12,168 bases of DNA from an uncultured Prevotella sp. (GTDB lineage: Bacteria > Bacteroidota > Bacteroidia > Bacteroidales > Bacteroidaceae). How positions within the stretch are numbered: position 1 is the first letter of the stretch; each line of letters starts with the position of its first letter. The stretch lies in assembly GCA_934217675.1 (NCBI GenBank), contig CAKQCV010000070.1, positions 1-12,168 of the forward strand, in the 5' to 3' direction. Below are positions 2 through 11,166 of the stretch, piece after piece. The position numbers and the translations under genes were made by a program. The notes beneath the pieces are model-generated. The model made no database searches, was not told the DNA's origin, and worked only from the letters and a program-made list of their open reading frames with translations.

Positions 2-435
2 TTGTGCTATGATTACTACAGCAAATTCAAAAGCCTGTCTGTTGATTCGGAGATGATGACATAGGCAGACCATATACCGACTTCAATACTCTGTATGTAG
101 TAGACGAGCAGACCAGAAAGATGCTCCGTTATTAGGAATATTTGGATCGGCGTGAAAGACGAATGGTTATCACTTATCATGATAATATGTACGTTCCACC
201 CAATCAGAAAGATATTCAGCTGCTTGCTTTACAGCAGGCACTTCTGATGCTCAAAAATCTGTATCAAGATAAATTTGAAGTCATAATCGGTTTCTATTAT
301 GGAAACTACAAAACAATAAAAGCATATGCTGTGAACTGCGGAATATCAAGGCAGGCAATGTCTAAAAAACTGCATAAAGCTTTGAAAATTCTGCGTGCTA
401 TATGCTTTGAAAAACTTGAGAATCTTGAAAACTGA
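2..435 (+). pseudogene. Broken sigma-region-4-like HTH protein (3' part)
   Basis: Three pieces read as one protein. Frame 2 from the window edge gives a tail with SLSVDSEMM and stops at 62-64. Frame 1 from about 58 continues with GRPYTDFNTLYVVDE but meets TAG at 133-135. The same frame then runs from TTG 142 (or ATG 163) to 435. The last piece holds YGNYKTIKAYAVNCGISRQAM followed by KKLHKALKILR, which looks like a sigma-70 region 4 helix-turn-helix; DNA binding is inferred from that alone. The frame change near 55-60 plus the in-frame TAG suggest a decayed gene, although the 97-codon 3' piece stays open and could still be translated. I recall related small proteins next to serine recombinases in Clostridia mobile elements, but I cannot name a family. 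The true 5' end is outside the window. Confidence 0.6.
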
Positions 436-587: not shown

Positions 588-2189
588 ATGCAGACAGGGA
601 AAATCACTGCTTTATATGTCAGATTCTCTTTCGATGACGGAATTGACACGGAAAGCGGAAGCATTGAACATCAGAAAGCGTTGCTGAAAAACTATGCCGA
701 ATCCAATGGCTTTACCAATCTTTCTTACTACGCAGATGACGGTTATACAGGCACAAATTTTAACCGTCCAAACTTTCAGCGTATGATGAATGACATCAAA
801 AACGGACTGGTTGGAACAGTCATTGTCAAAGATATGAGCCGACTGGGCAGAAATTATCTTATGGTAGGTCAGTATGTGGAAATCGACTTTTCAAAGTATG
901 ATGTTCGATTTATTGCAATCAGCGATAATGTGGATTCTGCCAAAGGAATGAATGATTTACTGCCGATCAATAATCTGATGAACGAATGGTACAGCAGAGA
1001 TATTTCAAAGAAGATCCGTTCCATGGTACGCCAAAAGGGCAACAGCGGTCAGCATATCACCTCAAAACTGCCTTACGGGTATTACAACACCCCTGAGAAT
1101 AAACAGGATTGGCAGATAGATGAGGAAGCTGCGGAAGTTGTCCGAGAAATATTTGAACTGTATGTGCATCATGCAATGGGGACAAAGCAGATTGCATTGC
1201 AGTTGCAGGCTGAAAAACGTGTCGGAGTGGAATACCACAAGAAAATACGAAAAGGGATTGCGGTTACTGCTGAGAACATTTATTTGTGGAACAGCGGAAC
1301 GATTGCTGCCATTCTCAAGCGTCAGGAATACGTCGGTGATACGGTCAATTTTCGCACACAGATTGCTTCTTATAAGAATAAAACCGTGATCTACAACGAA
1401 AGTGACAAGATCGGGATTTTTACCGACACACACCCTGCAATTATCAGTCGTGAACTGTTTCAAATGGCACAGGACAGACGTGAAAAGACAATACGTCATC
1501 CGTCAAGACCACATAAGTATCTTTTTGGTGATTATCTGTATTGTATGGACTGTCACGCAAGAATGCACGGCAGAAGATGTGGGACAAAAAGCGAAAACGC
1601 TCTTTATTGCTATGAGTGTACAACTTACAGGAAAAGCAAAGGGTGTTACTTTCATGGTGTTCCTGAGAAATATCTTGAAACCGAGGTCTTACAGGCAATT
1701 CAGAGAGTGATTTATAAGGCAAATGCCAATCCTGATGAATTCTACAAGACCATTCAGAAACGTGTTGAGAAGAAGTCTGACGACTGTAAAGCGGTTATTT
1801 TAGCGGAGCTTGAAAAATCCCAGCTTCGTATTACGGAAATCGATAAGTACATTCAAGGCTTGTTTGAAGCAAAGGTCAGAGGTGAAATAGACGACTCGCT
1901 GTTTGCAAGTTTGAAAAGGACTTACGATGAAGAAAAAGAACAGCTTAACGCATTGGTTGCAGAACGCATAGGAAAACTTCATGAGAAAAATGAGTCTGTC
2001 AACAAGGTCAAACTGTTTGTGCAGGCAATCAAAAAGTATGATGCCGTTACAGAACTCACTCCGCAGGTATTGGCTGACTTTATTGAACATATTGAAGTCG
2101 GCAAATGTCAAAACACGAGTAAAAAGCTGCCTTTCGCCAAAAGGGATAACGCAGTTTCGGTGTTTTTCTGGAGTGTCGGCATCTTTTAG
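588..2189 (+). CDS. Large serine recombinase (site-specific integrase), intact
   Basis: This 533-residue protein is the usual size for large serine recombinases of Firmicutes transposons. The N-terminal catalytic domain (about residues 6-150) shows YVRFS with Arg12 and catalytic Ser14, then DDGYTGTNFNRP (50-61) and VIVKDMSRLGRN (78-89). A recombinase DNA-binding domain follows (about 160-300), then a zinc ribbon with Cys319, Cys322, Cys341, Cys344 and Cys353, and a Lys/Glu-rich coiled coil (about 390-475). It cuts and rejoins DNA through a phosphoserine link at att sites. The start is fixed by AGGAGGA at 574-580, seven bases before ATG. The C-terminus (RDNAVSVFF near the end) looks natural. 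The partner element is not obvious: the sequence on both sides is decayed recombinase and HTH remnants, so this may be the surviving integrase of an older element. The residue before Ser14 is Phe where Leu is more usual. Confidence 0.92.
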   Translation: MQTGKITALYVRFSFDDGIDTESGSIEHQKALLKNYAESNGFTNLSYYADDGYTGTNFNRPNFQRMMNDIKNGLVGTVIVKDMSRLGRNYLMVGQYVEIDFSKYDVRFIAISDNVDSAKGMNDLLPINNLMNEWYSRDISKKIRSMVRQKGNSGQHITSKLPYGYYNTPENKQDWQIDEEAAEVVREIFELYVHHAMGTKQIALQLQAEKRVGVEYHKKIRKGIAVTAENIYLWNSGTIAAILKRQEYVGDTVNFRTQIASYKNKTVIYNESDKIGIFTDTHPAIISRELFQMAQDRREKTIRHPSRPHKYLFGDYLYCMDCHARMHGRRCGTKSENALYCYECTTYRKSKGCYFHGVPEKYLETEVLQAIQRVIYKANANPDEFYKTIQKRVEKKSDDCKAVILAELEKSQLRITEIDKYIQGLFEAKVRGEIDDSLFASLKRTYDEEKEQLNALVAERIGKLHEKNESVNKVKLFVQAIKKYDAVTELTPQVLADFIEHIEVGKCQNTSKKLPFAKRDNAVSVFFWSVGIF

Positions 2190-2685: not shown

Positions 2686-4752
2686 TTATCTAAATGTTAC
2701 ATTAAGGTCTAAAGCCTTCTGTGCTGCCTCCAATACAATCTGTTCTACTGCTGCTGTATAAGTTTCCTCATCAATCTGTGTTAAATTGAAATAATTCATA
2801 GAATTCTGAAGAAAGTTTTGGAACTTACTCTTAAAACTAAAAGCTTCTCTCTCTGCTTCTTGGATTGCCTTATAAAATAACAAGAGACTAACCAATGCTT
2901 TAGGATTCACATAAGTTTCTACAGTCTTCATATACTTCTCATTTGCTTCCTGTGTTCCCTTGACGTCATGGACTTTAAGTGTCTGGAATACTACTGAATG
3001 AATAAATTCAGCAGAAACGAAGTTGCGAAGGTTTGCTGTAAAGTTAACTGAAAAAGACTTACAGTTATAAAAATAAGCCTCATCAATATTTGATGTGTAA
3101 CCATCACCATTTTTCAGTCTACGTCTAAGAGCGTTATATGCATTACCATGAGGAGTCTTTCCAAGGCTAAGTGCGATATCAGACATACCTGGTGTGAACA
3201 CTTTCTTGTCAGTAGAGTTATCTGTAACATGAACATGGATGAGCTCGGCAAGGCGCTTCTTATCGACAACTGGAGTAGGCACTCCTCCTTCGTTAGGTTC
3301 AAATTTAATCTTATACGCACTTTCCTTTAGAGACTTCGCCATATCCTCAAGAATAATTTTATATGCTTCAAATACATTATAATCCTTCACAAATGCATCT
3401 GGAAAACTGGCATCACGTTTAAGATAACATGCTAATGACTTAATTGCCATACGTTTCTTAGCTCTTACCTGTGCCACCTTAAGACCACCATTTAGTTCCA
3501 TTATTCTATTTTCAATACACTTGCGAAGTTCCAGCTCAGTAAACTCCTTTTCATCGAAACTTTCGATTGAAAGTGGATCATCAAAGTCTTGCTTCTGAAG
3601 CGATGATATGAATAGATCCAACTTATTATGAATCATGAATACTGGTATCTGCTTGTTAAAGTTCTTAAGTACGTCACGATACAACTCTCCAATCTTCTTC
3701 TCATTAGTATCGCCTTCAAGCGGTACCACCATCGCAATTGCATCTACATCGCCCTTGTAAAGAAGCTCAGAGCAATAATCCACATTTTCGTCGTCAGTGT
3801 TATCGGCATGATATAATCCTTTAGTATCAAGTGTTGCAAATACAATGTTATCATTACTATCTCTGAAAACCTTGTTAGTAATAGGGTTATCTGAAATGAA
3901 TTTAGAGAACATTCTATTCATTGGTACATAAATTACAATTTCACTGCAGAGCACCTCAAGTGATAAACGCTGACCAGCTTGGATGTTATTAGCTGTAAAC
4001 ATCGCTTTGATAAATTCTGTGTCCGGCTCATCAAGCATGATATCTTTATAGTAATAGCCATCACCTGAAATATCTACCTTGCTGAAATATGTAAAAAATA
4101 CCTTCGAAAGATTACCATTAAGTGTTTCCCAGATTCTACAAAGTTCTCGCTTGAATGTATCTTTCTGTGAATCCATTGTACGTTCAACTTCCTGCTGAAT
4201 AGCCGCCATAAACTTTTTGCTACTTTCCTTTACCTCAACCTCGGCCATCTCATTTTTTACAGTATTATAAATACTATAATTGTATTGATGAAGATTGTAT
4301 CTGTAGTAAAGACGAACAATTTCCTTAATAAAGTTTTCTTTCTGTTCATCTGTAAGGAGTGAAAGGATGGCCTTAACATTATTACGCTTAGTAAGCTGGT
4401 CTCTTAATGCCTCGTCAAGAATTTCCTCATCCTTACCAACAACTGGTGCAACTACCTTTCCAAGGTCTTTTACAACCTTTGCAATTGCCTTTGATACAAT
4501 CTCTGTAAAAAGGTTTCAGCTGAATGGATTTGCGTCCTGCTTTACCGCAATTACCATCTTATCACTGTACTCTGTTGTGAAAACCATAAGTCTCTCGTTA
4601 AGGGTTGAGTTGGTATTTCCAACTCCTTCAATAAGAATCTTTCTAGCTCTTGAATCTGCTGGAACCGTTCCAATTTCTGTTTTACCGTTTCCGGTACCTC
4701 CTAAAAATTCAAGCACTCTAAAATAGGGCTTCAAACTAATGTAGTTATCCAT
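2686..4752 (-). pseudogene. P-loop GTPase-like protein interrupted by one in-frame UGA
   Basis: From ATG 4752 (RBS AAGGAGGT at 4767-4760, seven bases away) the frame runs 78 codons to TGA at 4518-4516. It then stays open in the same frame for 609 more codons to the stop at 2686. Without the UGA the product is about 688 residues. Residues 18-25, GGTGNGKT, form a P-loop (G1). After the UGA come DTKG (about 309-312; G3 position, DxxG) and NKLD (about 376-379; G4, NKxD), each after a hydrophobic beta-strand-like stretch. This points to a TRAFAC-type GTPase. The G1-G3 gap of about 285 residues is far larger than in classical GTPases and is mostly helical, so a large insertion in the G domain is likely. 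The rest is charged and helical with no signal peptide or clear membrane span. ATG 4248 is a poor independent start: it has no RBS and the open frame continues upstream. UGA could be a nonsense mutation (most likely), a sequence error or a recoding site. I do not recognise the family; the function is unknown. Confidence 0.75.
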
Positions 4753-4957
4753 TGTAACTACCTCCTTAAAAATATATTTAAGCCAATAAAAAATCCATAC
4801 CAACCCGAACGGATGATATGGATAGAATAAGCCTAAATATAAGGAGACATTTACAAATATATTTTTAGCATTCTAACCGTTATCACTAAACTGTCGGATC
4901 GGTTCTGTAGCGGGTAGCTACATACTACTAAACAAAATAGGACTTTGATATTAACTT
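4753..4957 (-). promoter_or_regulatory. Long structured 5' leader of the GTPase-like gene
   Basis: About 205 nt lie between the expected transcription start and ATG 4752. The leader holds a small hairpin GTAGC-GGGTA-GCTAC (4907-4921) and an AACCG/CGGTT stem (4875-4879 with 4900-4904). On the - strand, AACGG from that second stem is also complementary to CCGTT in the 5' arm of the terminator-like hairpin, so two exclusive folds can be drawn. Tiny upstream frames are present (ATG-TAG at about 4924, and a 6-codon frame beginning in GAATGCTAAAA). Known riboswitch consensus sequences were not recognised. A leader-peptide or ligand-dependent attenuation system is an inference. Confidence 0.4.
4785..4821 (-). 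terminator. Terminator-like hairpin in the GTPase leader (possible attenuator)
   Basis: Read on the - strand, CCATATCATCC (from 4821) pairs with GGGTTGGTATGG (to 4795): about 10 pairs with one mismatch and a GTTCG loop. It is followed at once by ATTTTTTATT (4794-4785). This has the form of an intrinsic terminator, but it sits inside the transcribed leader, 18 nt before the RBS. It should stop most transcripts unless an upstream alternative fold competes. Confidence 0.6.
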
Positions 4958-4963
4958 ATATAT

Positions 4964-4992
4964 ATTATATAACAGATAGATTACTTTGTCAA
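4964..4992 (-). promoter_or_regulatory. Perfect-consensus sigma-70 promoter of the GTPase-like gene
   Basis: On the - strand, TTGACA (4992-4987), a spacer of exactly 17 bp and TATAAT (4969-4964) match the housekeeping consensus at all 12 positions. This implies strong constitutive initiation, which makes the terminator-like hairpin downstream a plausible control point. Confidence 0.85.
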
Positions 4993-5232
4993 GGTTTTTT
5001 CCAAAAATATATTTTTTTAAAAGCAACGTTCTAAAGAAAATCAAAGTCGGCTTTGGCAAATTATTATATAACCTGATTTTGATGACCATTACTCCACAAA
5101 ATCGATTACATATAGGAGTACCAGTGATATACAGAATAACTTACTGAAAATGCCGACTGTTTGATGCCGTTTTCTTTTAGTATACTTTCGTGTATCTGAA
5201 CGGTTGTTTTCGCCCTACCCGTAAAGCAACAG
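4993..5232. other. Gene-free stretch upstream of the GTPase promoter
   Basis: AT-rich DNA between the GTPase promoter and the tRNA-side terminator. On the - strand a frame reads through about 35 codons (ITGTPICNRFCGVMVIK), but it has no start or RBS and resembles nothing I know. I see no gene here. Confidence 0.4.
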
Positions 5233-5323: not shown

Positions 5324-5355
5324 TGGTTGCGAGAGCTGGATTTGAACCAACGACC
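5324..5355 (-). tRNA. 3' fragment of a tRNA-fMet-like gene (not a full tRNA)
   Basis: On the - strand GGTCGTTGGTTCAAATCC and the following bases form a T-arm (GTTGG, loop TTCAAAT, CCAGC), the acceptor 3' strand TCTCGCA, discriminator A and encoded CCA. GGTCG before the T-arm and the CGCAACCA end match bacterial initiator tRNA-fMet. No D-arm, anticodon arm or matching 5' acceptor (CGCGAGA or TGCGAGA) is found upstream; instead the integrase C-terminal codons begin within 8 bp. It is therefore a truncated tRNA end displaced by integration. Confidence 0.75.
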
Positions 5356-5374
5356 GTATATGTCACTTAGAGAG
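5324..5374 (-). other. Left attachment junction of the integrated element
   Basis: The tRNA-fMet 3' end (5324-5355) joins element DNA reading CTCTCTAAGTGACATATACG on the - strand (5374-5355). That element arm is an imperfect inverted copy of the arm at 11695-11715 (TCTCTAAGT, ACA and TACG conserved). The 10-bp ACCAACGACC at 5346-5355 recurs as ACCTACGACC at 11708-11717 in direct orientation. The integrase pseudogene ends inside this junction (stop 5365-5363), a common place for an att site. Confidence 0.65.
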
Positions 5375-6981
5375 GTCAACACTCCCCAAATCACCAACAA
5401 AACGGTAGTATATCGTGATTCTTTGGGTGTATCCTTTTTTTGCTTTTTACTTTGTTACCAACGACAATTTTATCAATAAGTCTATTAAGCAGTTCACTGT
5501 CAAGTTGCTTGATTTCTGTGTATATTCTAACAATATTCATGAAATGTGAAATGTTGTCATCGGTTGTTTTTGGTGTTGCAATCTGCGATTCTAAACTGGA
5601 AAATTTCTCGGTTAGTTGTTGGTGTTCAAATTCTGAGGGTTTCGTCATTTCGAGAAATTTTCGGACAGGAAGCACTCCATTAAGCTTATCCTCATACATC
5701 TGGTTAAACTTTTTATCGAGCAACTGTAAGCGTTTCTTGACTTCGTCCACTTCTTTTCGTAACGCCTGCATCTTGTATGTGCTTGTGTTGCCCAGTTCCA
5801 CTTACAATCTGTGTGCGAAAAACTGTTCATTTGCACGAAGCAAGCTTAACTTACTCTGAATGTCAGACAAGACAAGCTGGTACAAATCATCGTATTGTAT
5901 AAAGTGCAATGTGCAAGCATCTTTGCGTTTATAGGTACTGCACGAAAAATAGTGCTTACCGGCTTTGTTGTTACCCAGAGTGAGTGCATAACCGCATCTG
6001 TCGCACTTTACAAGCCCTGCAAAGATATTGACACCACCTGTTATACTCCCTCTCTTACGACAGTTCAGACGTGCGTGTGCATCGTCCCACAGCCTTTCAG
6101 TGATTATTGGCTCGTGGGTATCTTTTACAATAATCCATTTACTTTCGTCAACTGGTACAACCTTTTTACTTTCGAACAACAACTTCTGTTTTTGCCGTTG
6201 ATAATGCAACCAAGATATTCGGCATTTTCCAGAATCCGTCTTACAGATACAAGATTCCAATCGTATGGGTATTTGTTGTAAGTCTTGCCGTCATTCTGGT
6301 AACGATATGCTGTCGGTGTCAGAATCTTTCTTTCACTAAGTACACGAGCTACCTTGTTGTAACCATAACCCCTGTAGGCAACCATTTCAAATATCTCTCT
6401 GACGATTGGTGCTGTTACCTCATCAACTACAAGGACGTGCTTGTCCTCAGACGATTTGCAGTAGCCGTAGGGGGCATTCGTGCCGATGAACTCACCTCTT
6501 ACCGCCTTTGTCCTAAACGCCTGACGTGTTTTACGGCTTACATCAGCAGGATAGCACTGATTAAATACGTTCTTGATTGGCGTTATGAAATCGTAGTCCG
6601 CACTGTTCTCAGTATCTATGCCGTCACTAATTGCAATGAATCTCACACCACTTTTTGGAAAAGTTTCCTCAATCAATTTGCCTACTCCGATATAATCCCT
6701 GCCTAGTCTTGACAAGTCTTTCACCACAATCACATTTACAACATTATTGTGTACATCATTCATCATTCGCCGAAAGTTTGGACGATTAAAATTCGTGCCG
6801 GTGTAGCCGTCATCGCAATAAAAATTGTGTATTGTCAATCCATGGGACTGACAGTAATCTTCCAGCAATTTTCTCTGCGTTTCAATCGAAACGCTGGTGC
6901 TGTCTGTCATATCCTCACGTGACAGCCTACAATAACAAGCCGTAGTATATTCGCTCTGTCCGCTAATGGTTTTTCACTCAT
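5363..6981 (-). pseudogene. Large serine integrase of the element, multiply frame-damaged
   Basis: Homologous segments appear in order. TTACYCRLSRED (6941-6908; catalytic Ser) joins in frame to a 261-codon stretch ending at 6125 with DDGYTGTNFNRP and VIVVKDLSRLGRD. Next come the zinc-ribbon part (6260-5802; CDRCGYA, then CSTYKRKDAC) and a coiled-coil part (5801-5391). The true C-terminus YYRFVGDLGSVDLSK ends at 5365-5363. Lesions: no ATG, GTG or TTG in frame upstream of TTACYC, with the likely start ATG 6981 one frame away; a frameshift at or near the A5 tract on the - strand (6193-6189), just after IINGK; an in-frame TAA at 5804-5802; and a frameshift at about 5411 just before YYRFVG. Intact, it would be about 535 residues. 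It would have driven integration at the adjacent tRNA end. It differs clearly from the recombinase at 588-2189, although DDGYTGTNFNRP is shared. Confidence 0.85.
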
Positions 6982-7473: not shown

Positions 7474-8750
7474 TTACCTCTCAATATCATAGTCGGCGTT
7501 GTGTGCCTGTTGTGGGTTCTCTCTGACGGTCTGAGCGTGCATTTGGACTGCATCAGACGTTCTTGGTCATGGTTAATCTTCCGCACGTAACCACCGCCTG
7601 CAAGCAGGTTCTCAGCTTCATAACGAGCCTGACTTTTTGCCATCCACGTCAACCTCTGCTGTTGCTGTGCAAGCTGTTGTTGTGCTTGATGCAGTGCTTC
7701 TTCTCTTTGAAAGAGCGTTTGCTCTTTCTGATACTATTGCCGTGCTGTGTAGGTTTGTCGCTTCACCGTTTGCTCCTGTTCCTGTGCAGTTTTATCCAGC
7801 TGTTTTTCTTTCTCTTGCAACTGGTCAGTTAGCTTTTTTACCTGTGCCAACTCATGACTTTTTTCGAGTGTCATTGCTCTCTTTACCTCGTCAGCATTTG
7901 CGATAATAGCTTCCGCAGCAGCAACCTTTTTCGAGCCTTTTCCCAACAAAAACTCCGAAACTTTTTTGAGTGCAGCCTGTTCCACATCTGATTGCAATTG
8001 TTCTTTTTTCTCCGTGAGTTTCTCAATTTCTTGCTTGTTTTTTTCTGCTGTTTGTCTGTACTCCTCACAGGTGTAAGTGTGTCCTCTGCCTTTGGTTTCT
8101 TTGGCAATTTCAACGCCGTGTCTTTCACAAATTTCACGAAAAATATTTCGCTCCGACTTCATGAAGTTCGCAATTGCATCTACCCCTGTGCCGTATCCCA
8201 TTTTCTCCAGTGCTTTACTAATACTCTGCTGTCTTGTCAAGCCGGTTTTGTAGCCCTCGGCGAATGGAATCATGTCATAGTGCAGGTGCGGTGTAGCTTC
8301 GTCCTGATGTATAACTGCATTGAAAATATAGAACTGCGGATTGCGTTCCGTGAAACCTGCCATGTACTCTTGAAGGCACTCAACGGACGTTGCAGCCATA
8401 TCTGGATTGCTTGCGTAACCGGTGTCGTACATTGTGCCGAAGCTAACCACATACTCGTAGAACGATTGCCTTTTGTCCTTGCCTTTTAAGATGGTGTCAG
8501 CTTGCATTGATTCTGGATTTTCACCAAAAAATTTCTCGAAATAATTTTGAATTTTTCTATCCGAACGCCGTTGCTTTTTGTTGTATTCTGCTGTCGCATC
8601 GCCGAAGATTTCCTCATAGGCTTCGGCTAAACTTTGTTGTTTCAGTGTGATGTTATTTTCTATCCGGCTCTTGTCAACGTTCGGCAAAATGATGTCCCTG
8701 TTGTTGTGCCGTAGCTTGCCTTTCCCTCTTACATAACTGATGTGCCTCAT
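7474..8750 (-). pseudogene. mobV: MobV-family relaxase (Mob/Pre), with in-frame TAG and frameshift
   Basis: The ATG at 8750 is chosen because AAAGGAG (8765-8759) is eight bases upstream; GTG 8756 would be too close. The N-terminus MRHISYVRGKGKLRHNNR matches the Mob/Pre motif I region, and HQDEATPHLH (about residues 148-157 from this start) is the metal-binding motif III of MobV relaxases. The C-terminal half is Lys/Glu/Gln-rich coiled coil. A TAG at 7736-7734 interrupts it, but the same frame continues as coiled coil (YQKEQTLFQREEALHQAQQQ). A one-base loss near 7554 then shifts the frame to a tail that ends at TAA 7476-7474 (MHAQTVRENPQQAHNADYDI). The full product would be about 425 residues. 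The TAG-truncated form (338 residues) keeps the whole catalytic domain and might still nick oriT. It mobilizes the element with help from a conjugative plasmid or ICE. Confidence 0.85.
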
Positions 8751-9162: not shown

Positions 9163-9825
9163 TCACGGCATCATCTCTGCCAGCAACTCACGCTTGTATT
9201 TGTAGAACGTATTGTGTGAGATTCCAGCCAGCTTTATGCACTCGCTGTCGCTCAATGTTCCGCCGAAACTCTTGCAGTGCTTTTGGATAATCTCTTTTGC
9301 TGGTTTGGCTTTTTTGACGTGTAGCTTTCGCCCTGCAACCTGTTCAATCTGTTTGCCGTTTCTTCGTGCGGTTTCAATCCCCTCAGAAGTTCTGCGATGC
9401 AGGTCGTCCACTTCCTTTTGGGATTGCTCAAAGGCAAGCCTTATTTGATTCTCAGCTAAAATTTTTAGCATGTTGCGAGTTGCTTTGATGTACTCATCGG
9501 CAATCTGGTTTCCAGTATCAGACAAGCCCTCAGTACTACTTAAAGCCTTGCTGTAAGCCGCTGTATTGATGTGCGGTTCTTTGATAAAAACAAGGTTGAC
9601 ACCCTCGTCAGCGTTACGGCTCATTCGGCTCACGCTATCAAAGATTATCGTATCGCCGGAGCGTGCCAGCTTGACGATTTCTTCCAGCTTTTTTCGTCCG
9701 GTTGTCTTTGTTCCCGTGTAAATTTCTTTATAAATTTTCGCATTCGGGAATGCTGAAAGGATATTGCGGACTTGTCTATCAATGTTCTGCTTTGGGGTTG
9801 AGATGCGACAATAACCGTACTCCAT
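9163..9825 (-). CDS. Small serine resolvase/invertase-type recombinase
   Basis: The start ATG 9825 is chosen because GGAGT is 9-10 bases upstream and the protein then begins MEYGYCRISTPKQNIDRQ, the canonical resolvase N-terminus with Arg7 and catalytic Ser9. The 220-residue product has the rest of the catalytic domain (YTGTKTTGRKKLEEI, then GDTIIFDSVSRMSRNADEG), a long helix (about 115-160) and a C-terminal helix-turn-helix (ISHNTFYKYKREL). It would resolve multimers or invert DNA, and it helps stabilise rolling-circle replicons. After NADEGVNL, relatives usually have about 11 more residues before the ...NLVFIKE segment; here they are missing without a frame change, perhaps by deletion between two similar ...VNL/INL coding stretches. 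That stretch packs in the catalytic core, so activity is doubtful. Confidence 0.85.
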   Translation of the reverse strand: MEYGYCRISTPKQNIDRQVRNILSAFPNAKIYKEIYTGTKTTGRKKLEEIVKLARSGDTIIFDSVSRMSRNADEGVNLVFIKEPHINTAAYSKALSSTEGLSDTGNQIADEYIKATRNMLKILAENQIRLAFEQSQKEVDDLHRRTSEGIETARRNGKQIEQVAGRKLHVKKAKPAKEIIQKHCKSFGGTLSDSECIKLAGISHNTFYKYKRELLAEMMP

Positions 9826-9962
9826 TTTTATTTCACTCCTTTTCACTTGACTGTACCAATTTAACCGGTCGTTAATTTCAATTTTGATACGAAATCCATA
9901 CAACCATATTTTCTGATTGCACTTTTGGTACTCGCTTTCTGTACGGCAAAAATTGTACTCAG

Positions 9963-11166
9963 TTAACCGTACATCCGCTCCGTGTTGGCGTACTTGTAGT
10001 CCTGCCACAACGCCGTGTTATGCTCCGTGCACTTTGTATTTTCCCAATAGCTTTTTTCAGGCAGTGCTGGCATCGGAGATTGCACTGGTGGTGTGTCGTT
10101 TGTATGTATATCTGCTGACATATCGTAGCACCGTTCCAACCAGTATGCTATTATATTAGACGTGAAGTGATACTCGATACGATAGTACAACTCGATGTTG
10201 GTATCGGCGTCAATCACTCTAATATTTTTGAGTTTAGTGGGTGTTTCATCGCCCACTATTTTTTTTTGCTGTTTCAAATGAACAAGTCGCTGTTGCCGGC
10301 ATTGCATAATCACCGTATCCACGCATACACTGGCAGTTTTTCGGATAAAACGGAATGCGGTGTTCTTTTTTGGGGGAGCACGGATTGAGATAATGTATTA
10401 TCGCTTCCAGTTCGTCCTGACTGGTGATTTTTCGTATCAAAACTTGCATCGGATTTTCGTAGCCTTGCTTTCTTGCCCACCATCTCTTCGCCCACTTTTC
10501 AAACGTTTCTGGTATCTCATAGAAACACGCAATGTAATGAACGTGCCAACTGCCGTCTTCGCATGGTTCTAAGAATTTGTGAATCGCCTTAAATTCATCT
10601 CTGTATTGCTTTTTCAGACGGTTTATAAAGCCAGTAGCTAAACGATTCATTTCGTCATAAGACGGACGGCTTGCCATGGTGCAGGTGATGAATAGACACT
10701 TGTCCCACTTGTAGCTGGCGATTATCTCTTTGCCAACATGAACCCATGTCAGGTGCAGGCTTTTGCTGGTACGACAGCTAAATAACTCGCCTGTTTCTGT
10801 ATCGACTGTGCTGTAATCAACGTCAGCAATGCTATTGTCCACATCACATATGTTATTATCAGCAACGCTTGCAGTAGGCTTGCGTATTTTAGTAGGTGCA
10901 ATGGGTTTATCTGTTGTACTCAATGTTTTGCGAGTAGCTTTATTAACAGGCGTAAGCAAATGCTCCGCCAACTCGTCAGCGTTTTTGCAATGTTTCGCCC
11001 GTTTCAACATGTTGCTGGCTGTGACTACGTTCTTACCGATAGCAGGGTAATACTCGACCATTACTTTTGTCTTTTCGCTCGGCAAGTCTGCACAATGTTC
11101 ACCGGTGGTTATATCGACTTTCACATTGTCAGCCTGCTGTAAGATTGACTTGTATCGACATCTCAT
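9963..11166 (-). CDS. rep: Rolling-circle (HUH) replication initiator Rep, frameshifted at an A9 tract
   Basis: ATG 11166 is preferred over GTG 11175 because AGAGG lies about seven bases before it. Residues 158-164 (LFITCTM) are motif 1, WHVH (207-210) is the metal-binding HUH motif 2, and the AIIHYLNP region (255-262) with Tyr259 followed by lysines is the likely motif 3. IPFYPKN resembles the conserved stretch found after the catalytic domain of Firmicutes Rep proteins. As written the frame ends at 10246 after 306 residues. Just before, nine A's (- strand, 10267-10259) carry a frame change: skipping one A continues as IVGDETPTKLKNIRVIDADT to TAA 9965-9963, giving 400 residues. The catalytic motifs lie before the shift. 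Rep nicks the double-strand origin and starts rolling-circle copying of the excised element. Confidence 0.8.

What the first reader, a model, noticed from the sequence alone, without database searches (positions are those of the whole stretch)
2686..4752. An unfamiliar GTPase-like gene split by a single in-frame UGA
The frame is open on both sides of TGA 4518-4516 and the homology-like motifs are divided by it (P-loop before; DTKG and NKLD after), so one 688-codon gene is interrupted. The promoter is perfect and the RBS strong, and the 609-codon remainder has no other lesion, which would be surprising in an old pseudogene. Options are a recent nonsense mutation, a sequencing error, or regulated readthrough. 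I do not know the family.
Basis: partly seen in the sequence, partly recalled or inferred. Interest (0 to 1): 0.75.

Follow-up and report, generated by a model that had tools for sequence, protein, structure and literature searches.

The report
Broken mobile GTPase gene, switch-like leader
One stop codon has inactivated this copy of an undescribed bacterial GTPase gene whose intact relatives, in several cases, sit near phage-defence genes, and which carries an RNA leader that looks like an on/off switch.

Summary
In detail: one in-frame TGA (4518-4516) splits a 688-codon minus-strand gene (4752-2686). The 116 listed relatives longer than 600 aa all have a residue there (Arg in 106, Cys in 0), so it is a nonsense mutation, not recoding. 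The copy has 26 private amino-acid changes against 6 in its 95%-identical sister, which suggests relaxed constraint rather than a sequencing slip; a neighbouring recombinase gene is broken too. The family (P-loop GTPase plus a C-terminal helical domain with no PDB match found) has no accepted match in Pfam, NCBIfam, PADLOC or PHROGs (PHROGs: window parts only). It is rare (2 of 397 genomes in the centre genome's family, centre included). Three of five loci read lie near known or candidate defence genes. Unexpectedly, the gene has a ~205-nt leader: perfect promoter, a GUAGC-UACCC-GCUAC hairpin, an intrinsic terminator before the ribosome-binding site, and a strand that can pair with the terminator's 3' arm. 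The plan recurs in a 48%-identical homologue with a different pairing sequence. Best reading: a dead copy of an attenuator-controlled accessory, probably anti-phage, GTPase. The stop is ordinary; the family and its leader are the interesting part.

The parts
2686..4752 (-). 688-codon GTPase-family gene, interrupted by TGA
4516..4518 (-). in-frame TGA; relatives have Arg (106 of 116), Lys 4, Ser 2, Trp 2, Gln 1, Tyr 1
4519..4752 (-). 78-codon remnant with P-loop GGTGNGKT
2689..4515 (-). 609-codon remainder with DTKG, NKLD and the C-terminal helical domain; no further stop
2689..3330 (-). C-terminal helical domain (PHGN..ALRRRL motif), modelled at pLDDT 95.2, no PDB match found
4964..4992 (-). 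promoter TTGACA-17-TATAAT
4753..4958 (-). 5' leader (about 205 nt; start site assumed from the promoter); homology to the L001/L007 locus continues through it to 5001
4907..4921 (-). leader hairpin P1 GUAGC-UACCC-GCUAC, conserved in L001 (one pair changed on both sides) and L006
4895..4903 (-). candidate antiterminator strand ACCGAUCCG
4788..4823 (-). intrinsic terminator hairpin plus U-run between promoter and ribosome-binding site; 4799-4807 pairs either within the hairpin or with 4895-4903
   Evidence: the simple consensus scan did not list it
4761..4767 (-). Shine-Dalgarno AAGGAGG

Best explanation
The window holds an inactivated copy of a mobile, sporadically distributed P-loop GTPase gene that is most likely an anti-phage (or other mobile-element conflict) gene. 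Shown: one nonsense codon after residue 78 separates the P-loop end from the rest of the protein; listed relatives are uninterrupted; this copy has changed faster than its sister. Shown by sequence, function inferred: the gene is preceded by a promoter, a conserved hairpin, an intrinsic terminator and a strand complementary to the terminator's 3' arm. Inferred: transcription normally ends in the leader, and an unknown signal acting at the UACCC hairpin favours the antiterminator, so the GTPase is made. It would then act as a GTP-driven switch or effector through its C-terminal helical domain. In this copy translation stops after 78 codons.
For: A residue, mostly Arg, at the stop in 116 of 116 long relatives. 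26 window-only against 6 sister-only changes (binomial p 0.0005), more lopsided than the 9 control pairs, which share members. Recombinase beside it split by a frameshift inside one Pfam domain and by TAA. G motifs conserved; model pLDDT 87.8 with a GTPase fold. Defence genes within about 12 kb in 3 of the 5 loci read: type III R-M with PDC-S14 (L001/L007), McrC with an McrB-like AAA protein (L042), Leo-type dynamins with putAbiC and PDC-S49 (L002). Serine recombinases in L006 and L042. Leader: the P1 pattern is in 2 of 299 genomes of the centre's family, the two of those that carry the gene; terminator hairpins fold better than 200 of 200 shuffles in 4 leaders; antiterminator pairing at the same place.
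Against: Antiterminator pairing is modest for each leader: 25, 34, 27 and 127 of 500 shuffles do as well (window, L001, L006, L042); window and L001 are not independent. L042 lacks the P1 motif and L002 shows neither motif nor U-run terminator. The five window ORFs and five L006 ORFs scanned gave no defence system (HTH-type and one weak match only), and the GTPase matches no PADLOC profile. Only 4 of 292 near-invariant sites are changed in the window copy, rank 27 of 43 (tied), so decay is young. dN/dS to L001 is 0.056 and 0.127. The core P1 pattern followed by a terminator-like hairpin also occurs in one viral stretch (2 of 30 records) before an ORF that does not resemble the GTPase by eye. 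No reads to exclude an assembly error; no function test; no control for defence-gene proximity.
Confidence: 0.68

Rival explanations
1. The stop is a base-calling or assembly error and the gene is intact in the cell.
For: The remainder has no second stop or frameshift, dN/dS against L001 is low, 0.056 and 0.127, and near-invariant sites are barely touched, 4 of 292.
Against: 26 private changes against 6 in the sister, including a Trp conserved in the outgroup rows; a neighbouring recombinase gene is broken too.
Confidence: 0.15
2. UGA is read through or recoded (selenocysteine, tryptophan or regulated readthrough), so a full protein is made.
For: The frame is open on both sides.
Against: Relatives have Arg in 106 of 116, Cys in 0, Trp in 2, so no recoded residue is being kept there; no Rfam family matches the window at gathering score.
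Confidence: 0.04
3. The gene is accessory cargo with no defence role (for example element maintenance), and the defence neighbours merely reflect shared hot spots.
For: Serine recombinase elements in L006 and L042; no PADLOC match for the GTPase; no defence system recognised in window or L006; no proximity control was run.
Against: Three different kinds of defence neighbour in three distant loci.
Confidence: 0.3
4. The leader terminator is only an insulator against read-in transcription, not a switch.
For: No ligand or protein is known; pairing significance is modest.
Against: The terminator lies downstream of a promoter-like site in the window and, by eye, in L001 and L042, so it would cut the gene's own transcript; P1 stays while the pairing strands change together between window and L006.
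Confidence: 0.3

Closest known systems
Dynamin-like / mitofusin / IniA GTPases (and G-alpha) by fold
Transcription attenuators with antiterminator/terminator choice (riboswitch, T-box, PyrR types; recalled)
   Same: Promoter, leader, mutually exclusive hairpins, U-run before the ribosome-binding site.
   Different: No Rfam family at gathering score in the window, and only scores far below the curated cut-offs in the leaders of window and L006; trigger unknown.
Defence-island genes: type III R-M, McrBC, Leo dynamins, PDC-S14/S49
   Same: Physical neighbours of intact relatives.
   Different: The GTPase matches none of their profiles.

Membership tests
P-loop GTPase | P-loop GxxxxGK[ST] | tested here: met
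   GGTGNGKT in the window; G21, G23 and K24 invariant in 55 aligned relatives
P-loop GTPase | DxxG and [N/T]KxD motifs | tested here: met
   DTKG and NKLD in the window; D309, T310, G312, K377, D379 invariant in 55 rows; the divergent L042 protein has NRAD
P-loop GTPase | GTP binding and hydrolysis | not testable with these tools
   needs purified protein
Dynamin superfamily | dynamin-type G domain | tested here: inconclusive
Dynamin superfamily | helical stalk / GED | tested here: inconclusive
Known PADLOC anti-phage family | profile match | tested here: not met
   no family at E 0.01 for P0001, L001, L006 and L042 proteins; window parts only Cas11a at E 0.34
Selenoprotein | Cys or Sec in relatives at the UGA | tested here: not met
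   0 of 116 Cys
Unitary pseudogene | disabling stop absent from relatives, relaxed constraint | tested here: met
   the degree of decay is small
Transcription attenuator | intrinsic terminator between promoter and start codon | tested here: met
   terminator hairpin in window, L001, L006, L042; not seen in L002; promoters outside the window judged by eye
Transcription attenuator | alternative antiterminator pairing | tested here: inconclusive
   present in 4 leaders, shuffles 25, 34, 27 and 127 of 500
Transcription attenuator | signal-dependent readthrough | not testable with these tools
   needs reporter assay

The most novel reading that the evidence does not exclude
A new family of anti-phage GTPases with a previously unseen C-terminal domain, kept silent by a dedicated leader RNA whose hairpin (UACCC loop) senses a sign of infection and releases a transcription terminator, so that defence is switched on at the RNA level.
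Probability: 0.25. Interest if true: 0.78.

Novelty: new variant of a known kind. Interest (0 to 1): 0.45.

Why it matters
If right, it adds an undescribed GTPase family to the set of candidate defence genes in gut Firmicutes and offers a case in which such a gene is controlled by transcription attenuation, which can be tested with a simple reporter. The split gene itself is an example of a mobile accessory gene being lost by a nonsense mutation.

Full report
Observation. The minus strand carries ATG 4752, 78 codons, TGA 4518-4516 and then 609 open codons in the same frame to 2686. The G1 motif is before the stop, G3 and G4 after it. The promoter is a 12 of 12 match.

What relatives show. A search with the 609-residue part scored 7,993 candidates (capped) and found 225 proteins at E 0.001; 120 were listed, and 116 of these exceed 600 aa. 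All 116 have a residue at the stop: Arg 106, Lys 4, Ser 2, Trp 2, Gln 1, Tyr 1. The four shorter listed proteins were left out of that count; against P0001 they match residues 301-688, 278-643, 3-458 and 330-688, so they are pieces or truncated members, none broken at this stop. The gene is a single reading frame in those relatives, and this copy carries a nonsense codon. No cysteine is found, so selenocysteine is not a candidate.

Error or real loss. The closest relative, P0001, is 95% identical. Polarised with 41 outgroup proteins (72 before near-duplicates were dropped), the window copy has 26 private amino-acid changes and P0001 has 6, with 5 unresolved (binomial p 0.0005). Fourteen other pairs have 93-97% identity; nine have at least 10 informative sites, several sharing a member, and the most lopsided is 22:10. 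Against heavy decay: only 4 of 292 near-invariant sites are altered, rank 27 of 43 with ties, and dN/dS to L001 is 0.127 for the first part and 0.056 for the second. The reading is a functional past with recent loss. A higher mutation rate in this lineage, or assembly errors, cannot be excluded without reads or the DNA of P0001. The recombinase at 6910-5391 is broken as well: the PF07508 domain is divided between two frames (positions 2-66 in one, 60-100 in the other), and a TAA precedes the DUF4368 part. A TAG interrupts a MobV-like frame at 7734-7736 (MobV match below its cut-off), though I did not establish where intact relatives of that protein end. I saw no such break inside the other two recombinase frames of the window (588-2189, 9163-10008).

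Distribution and neighbours. The centre genome G001 is the one behind L001, a Lachnospiraceae MAG. The gene is rare around it: 2 of 397 genomes in its family, 1 of 391 in the class, 1 of 398 in the phylum, 3 of 392 in the order, the centre being counted in each; the draws overlap, and at most two candidates per genome were scored in these four searches. Five loci were read. L001/L007: UvrD-type helicase with PD-(D/E)XK, type III methylase and restriction enzyme, PDC-S14. L042: McrC (PF10117) and an McrB-like AAA protein, with a serine recombinase, lying between two parts of a PTS enzyme I gene. L002, a Paenibacillus plasmid: two dynamin-family genes that match Leo profiles, putAbiC and PDC-S49, 1-11 kb upstream. 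L006: gene at a contig end, followed by a MazF-like gene (below cut-off) and three large serine recombinases; of five ORFs in between scanned with PADLOC, one gave HTH-type matches and four none. Window: recombinases, a MobV-like relaxase and a weak Rep-like match; five ORFs scanned with PADLOC gave one weak match, Cas7g at E 0.005, and no defence gene. So 3 of 5 loci have known or candidate defence neighbours. No matched control of random accessory genes was run.

The leader. DNA similarity between window and L007 runs past the start codon to position 5001, just beyond the promoter (83% over 2,327 bases). The leader holds GUAGC-UACCC-GCUAC; L001 has GCAGC-UACCC-GCUGC, one pair changed on both sides; L006, whose protein is 48% identical to the window part and to P0001, has the window form again. 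A hairpin plus U-run follows in all three, directly before the ribosome-binding site, and L042 (34% identical) also has one; hairpin energies beat 200 of 200 shuffles in each of the four. P1 itself beats 200, 194 and 199 of 200 shuffles in window, L001 and L006. The strongest pairing between upstream leader and terminator loop/3' arm begins just after P1: ACCGAUCCG with CGGGUUGGU in the window, AAAUGACCAAA with UUUGGUCGUUU in L006. Shuffled upstream sequence does as well in 25, 34, 27 and 127 of 500 cases for window, L001, L006 and L042. This is suggestive, not conclusive. The pattern GYAGCTACCCGCTRCNGAA, drawn from these leaders, occurs in 2 of 299 genomes of the centre's family, the two of those that carry the gene; the reversed control pattern occurs in none of the 299. 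Since the pattern came from these loci, what is informative is its absence elsewhere. L042 lacks P1, and L002 shows neither P1 nor a U-run terminator. The shorter pattern GTAGCTACCCGCTAC has 30 stretches in viral contigs, of which L020 and L027, one sequence, also have a terminator-like hairpin downstream.

Mechanism. Shown: nonsense codon, intact relatives, conserved GTPase motifs, terminator between promoter and gene in the window. Inferred: regulated antitermination, infection-linked trigger, defence role. Recalled, not tested here: that a terminator placed between promoter and gene usually means attenuation, and that dynamin-like GTPases act in bacterial defence.

Verdict. The stop codon is an ordinary loss event. 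The family and its leader RNA deserve follow-up. Paper searches (listings only) showed no description of either, in a library that lacks most subscription papers.

Noticed in passing
window 5391-6910 (-): Large serine recombinase gene broken by a frameshift (within about 6125-6260, inside PF07508) and an in-frame TAA at 5802-5804.
   Followed up: partly
window 7734-7736 (-): In-frame TAG after 340 codons of a MobV-like relaxase frame; the frame then stays open for about 88 more codons.
   Followed up: partly
window 133-135 (+): In-frame TAG just before a weakly sigma-70-like ORF at 142-435; the frame is open upstream of it.
   Followed up: no
window 5330-5372 (-): By eye, a stretch like the 3' end of a tRNA (T-arm GGTTCAAATCC) next to the recombinase 3' end, perhaps an attachment site; ARAGORN finds no whole tRNA.
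   Followed up: no
L042 1-12000: Roughly 10-kb island with McrBC-like genes, HTH gene, serine recombinase and the GTPase lies between two parts of a PTS enzyme I gene.
   Followed up: partly
window 4753-4958 (-): Leader also contains CUCCUUAUAUUUA that can pair with the region around the Shine-Dalgarno sequence (fold), a possible second level of control; not evident by eye in L006.
   Followed up: no
L006 4610-4975 (+): MazF-like ORF (NCBIfam MazF E 6.2e-11, below cut-off) between the GTPase and the three recombinases.
   Followed up: partly
L020 1692-1830 (+): Viral contig with the core P1 pattern and, 49 nt on, a T-run after a strong hairpin, before a 404-codon ORF; probably chance.
   Followed up: partly
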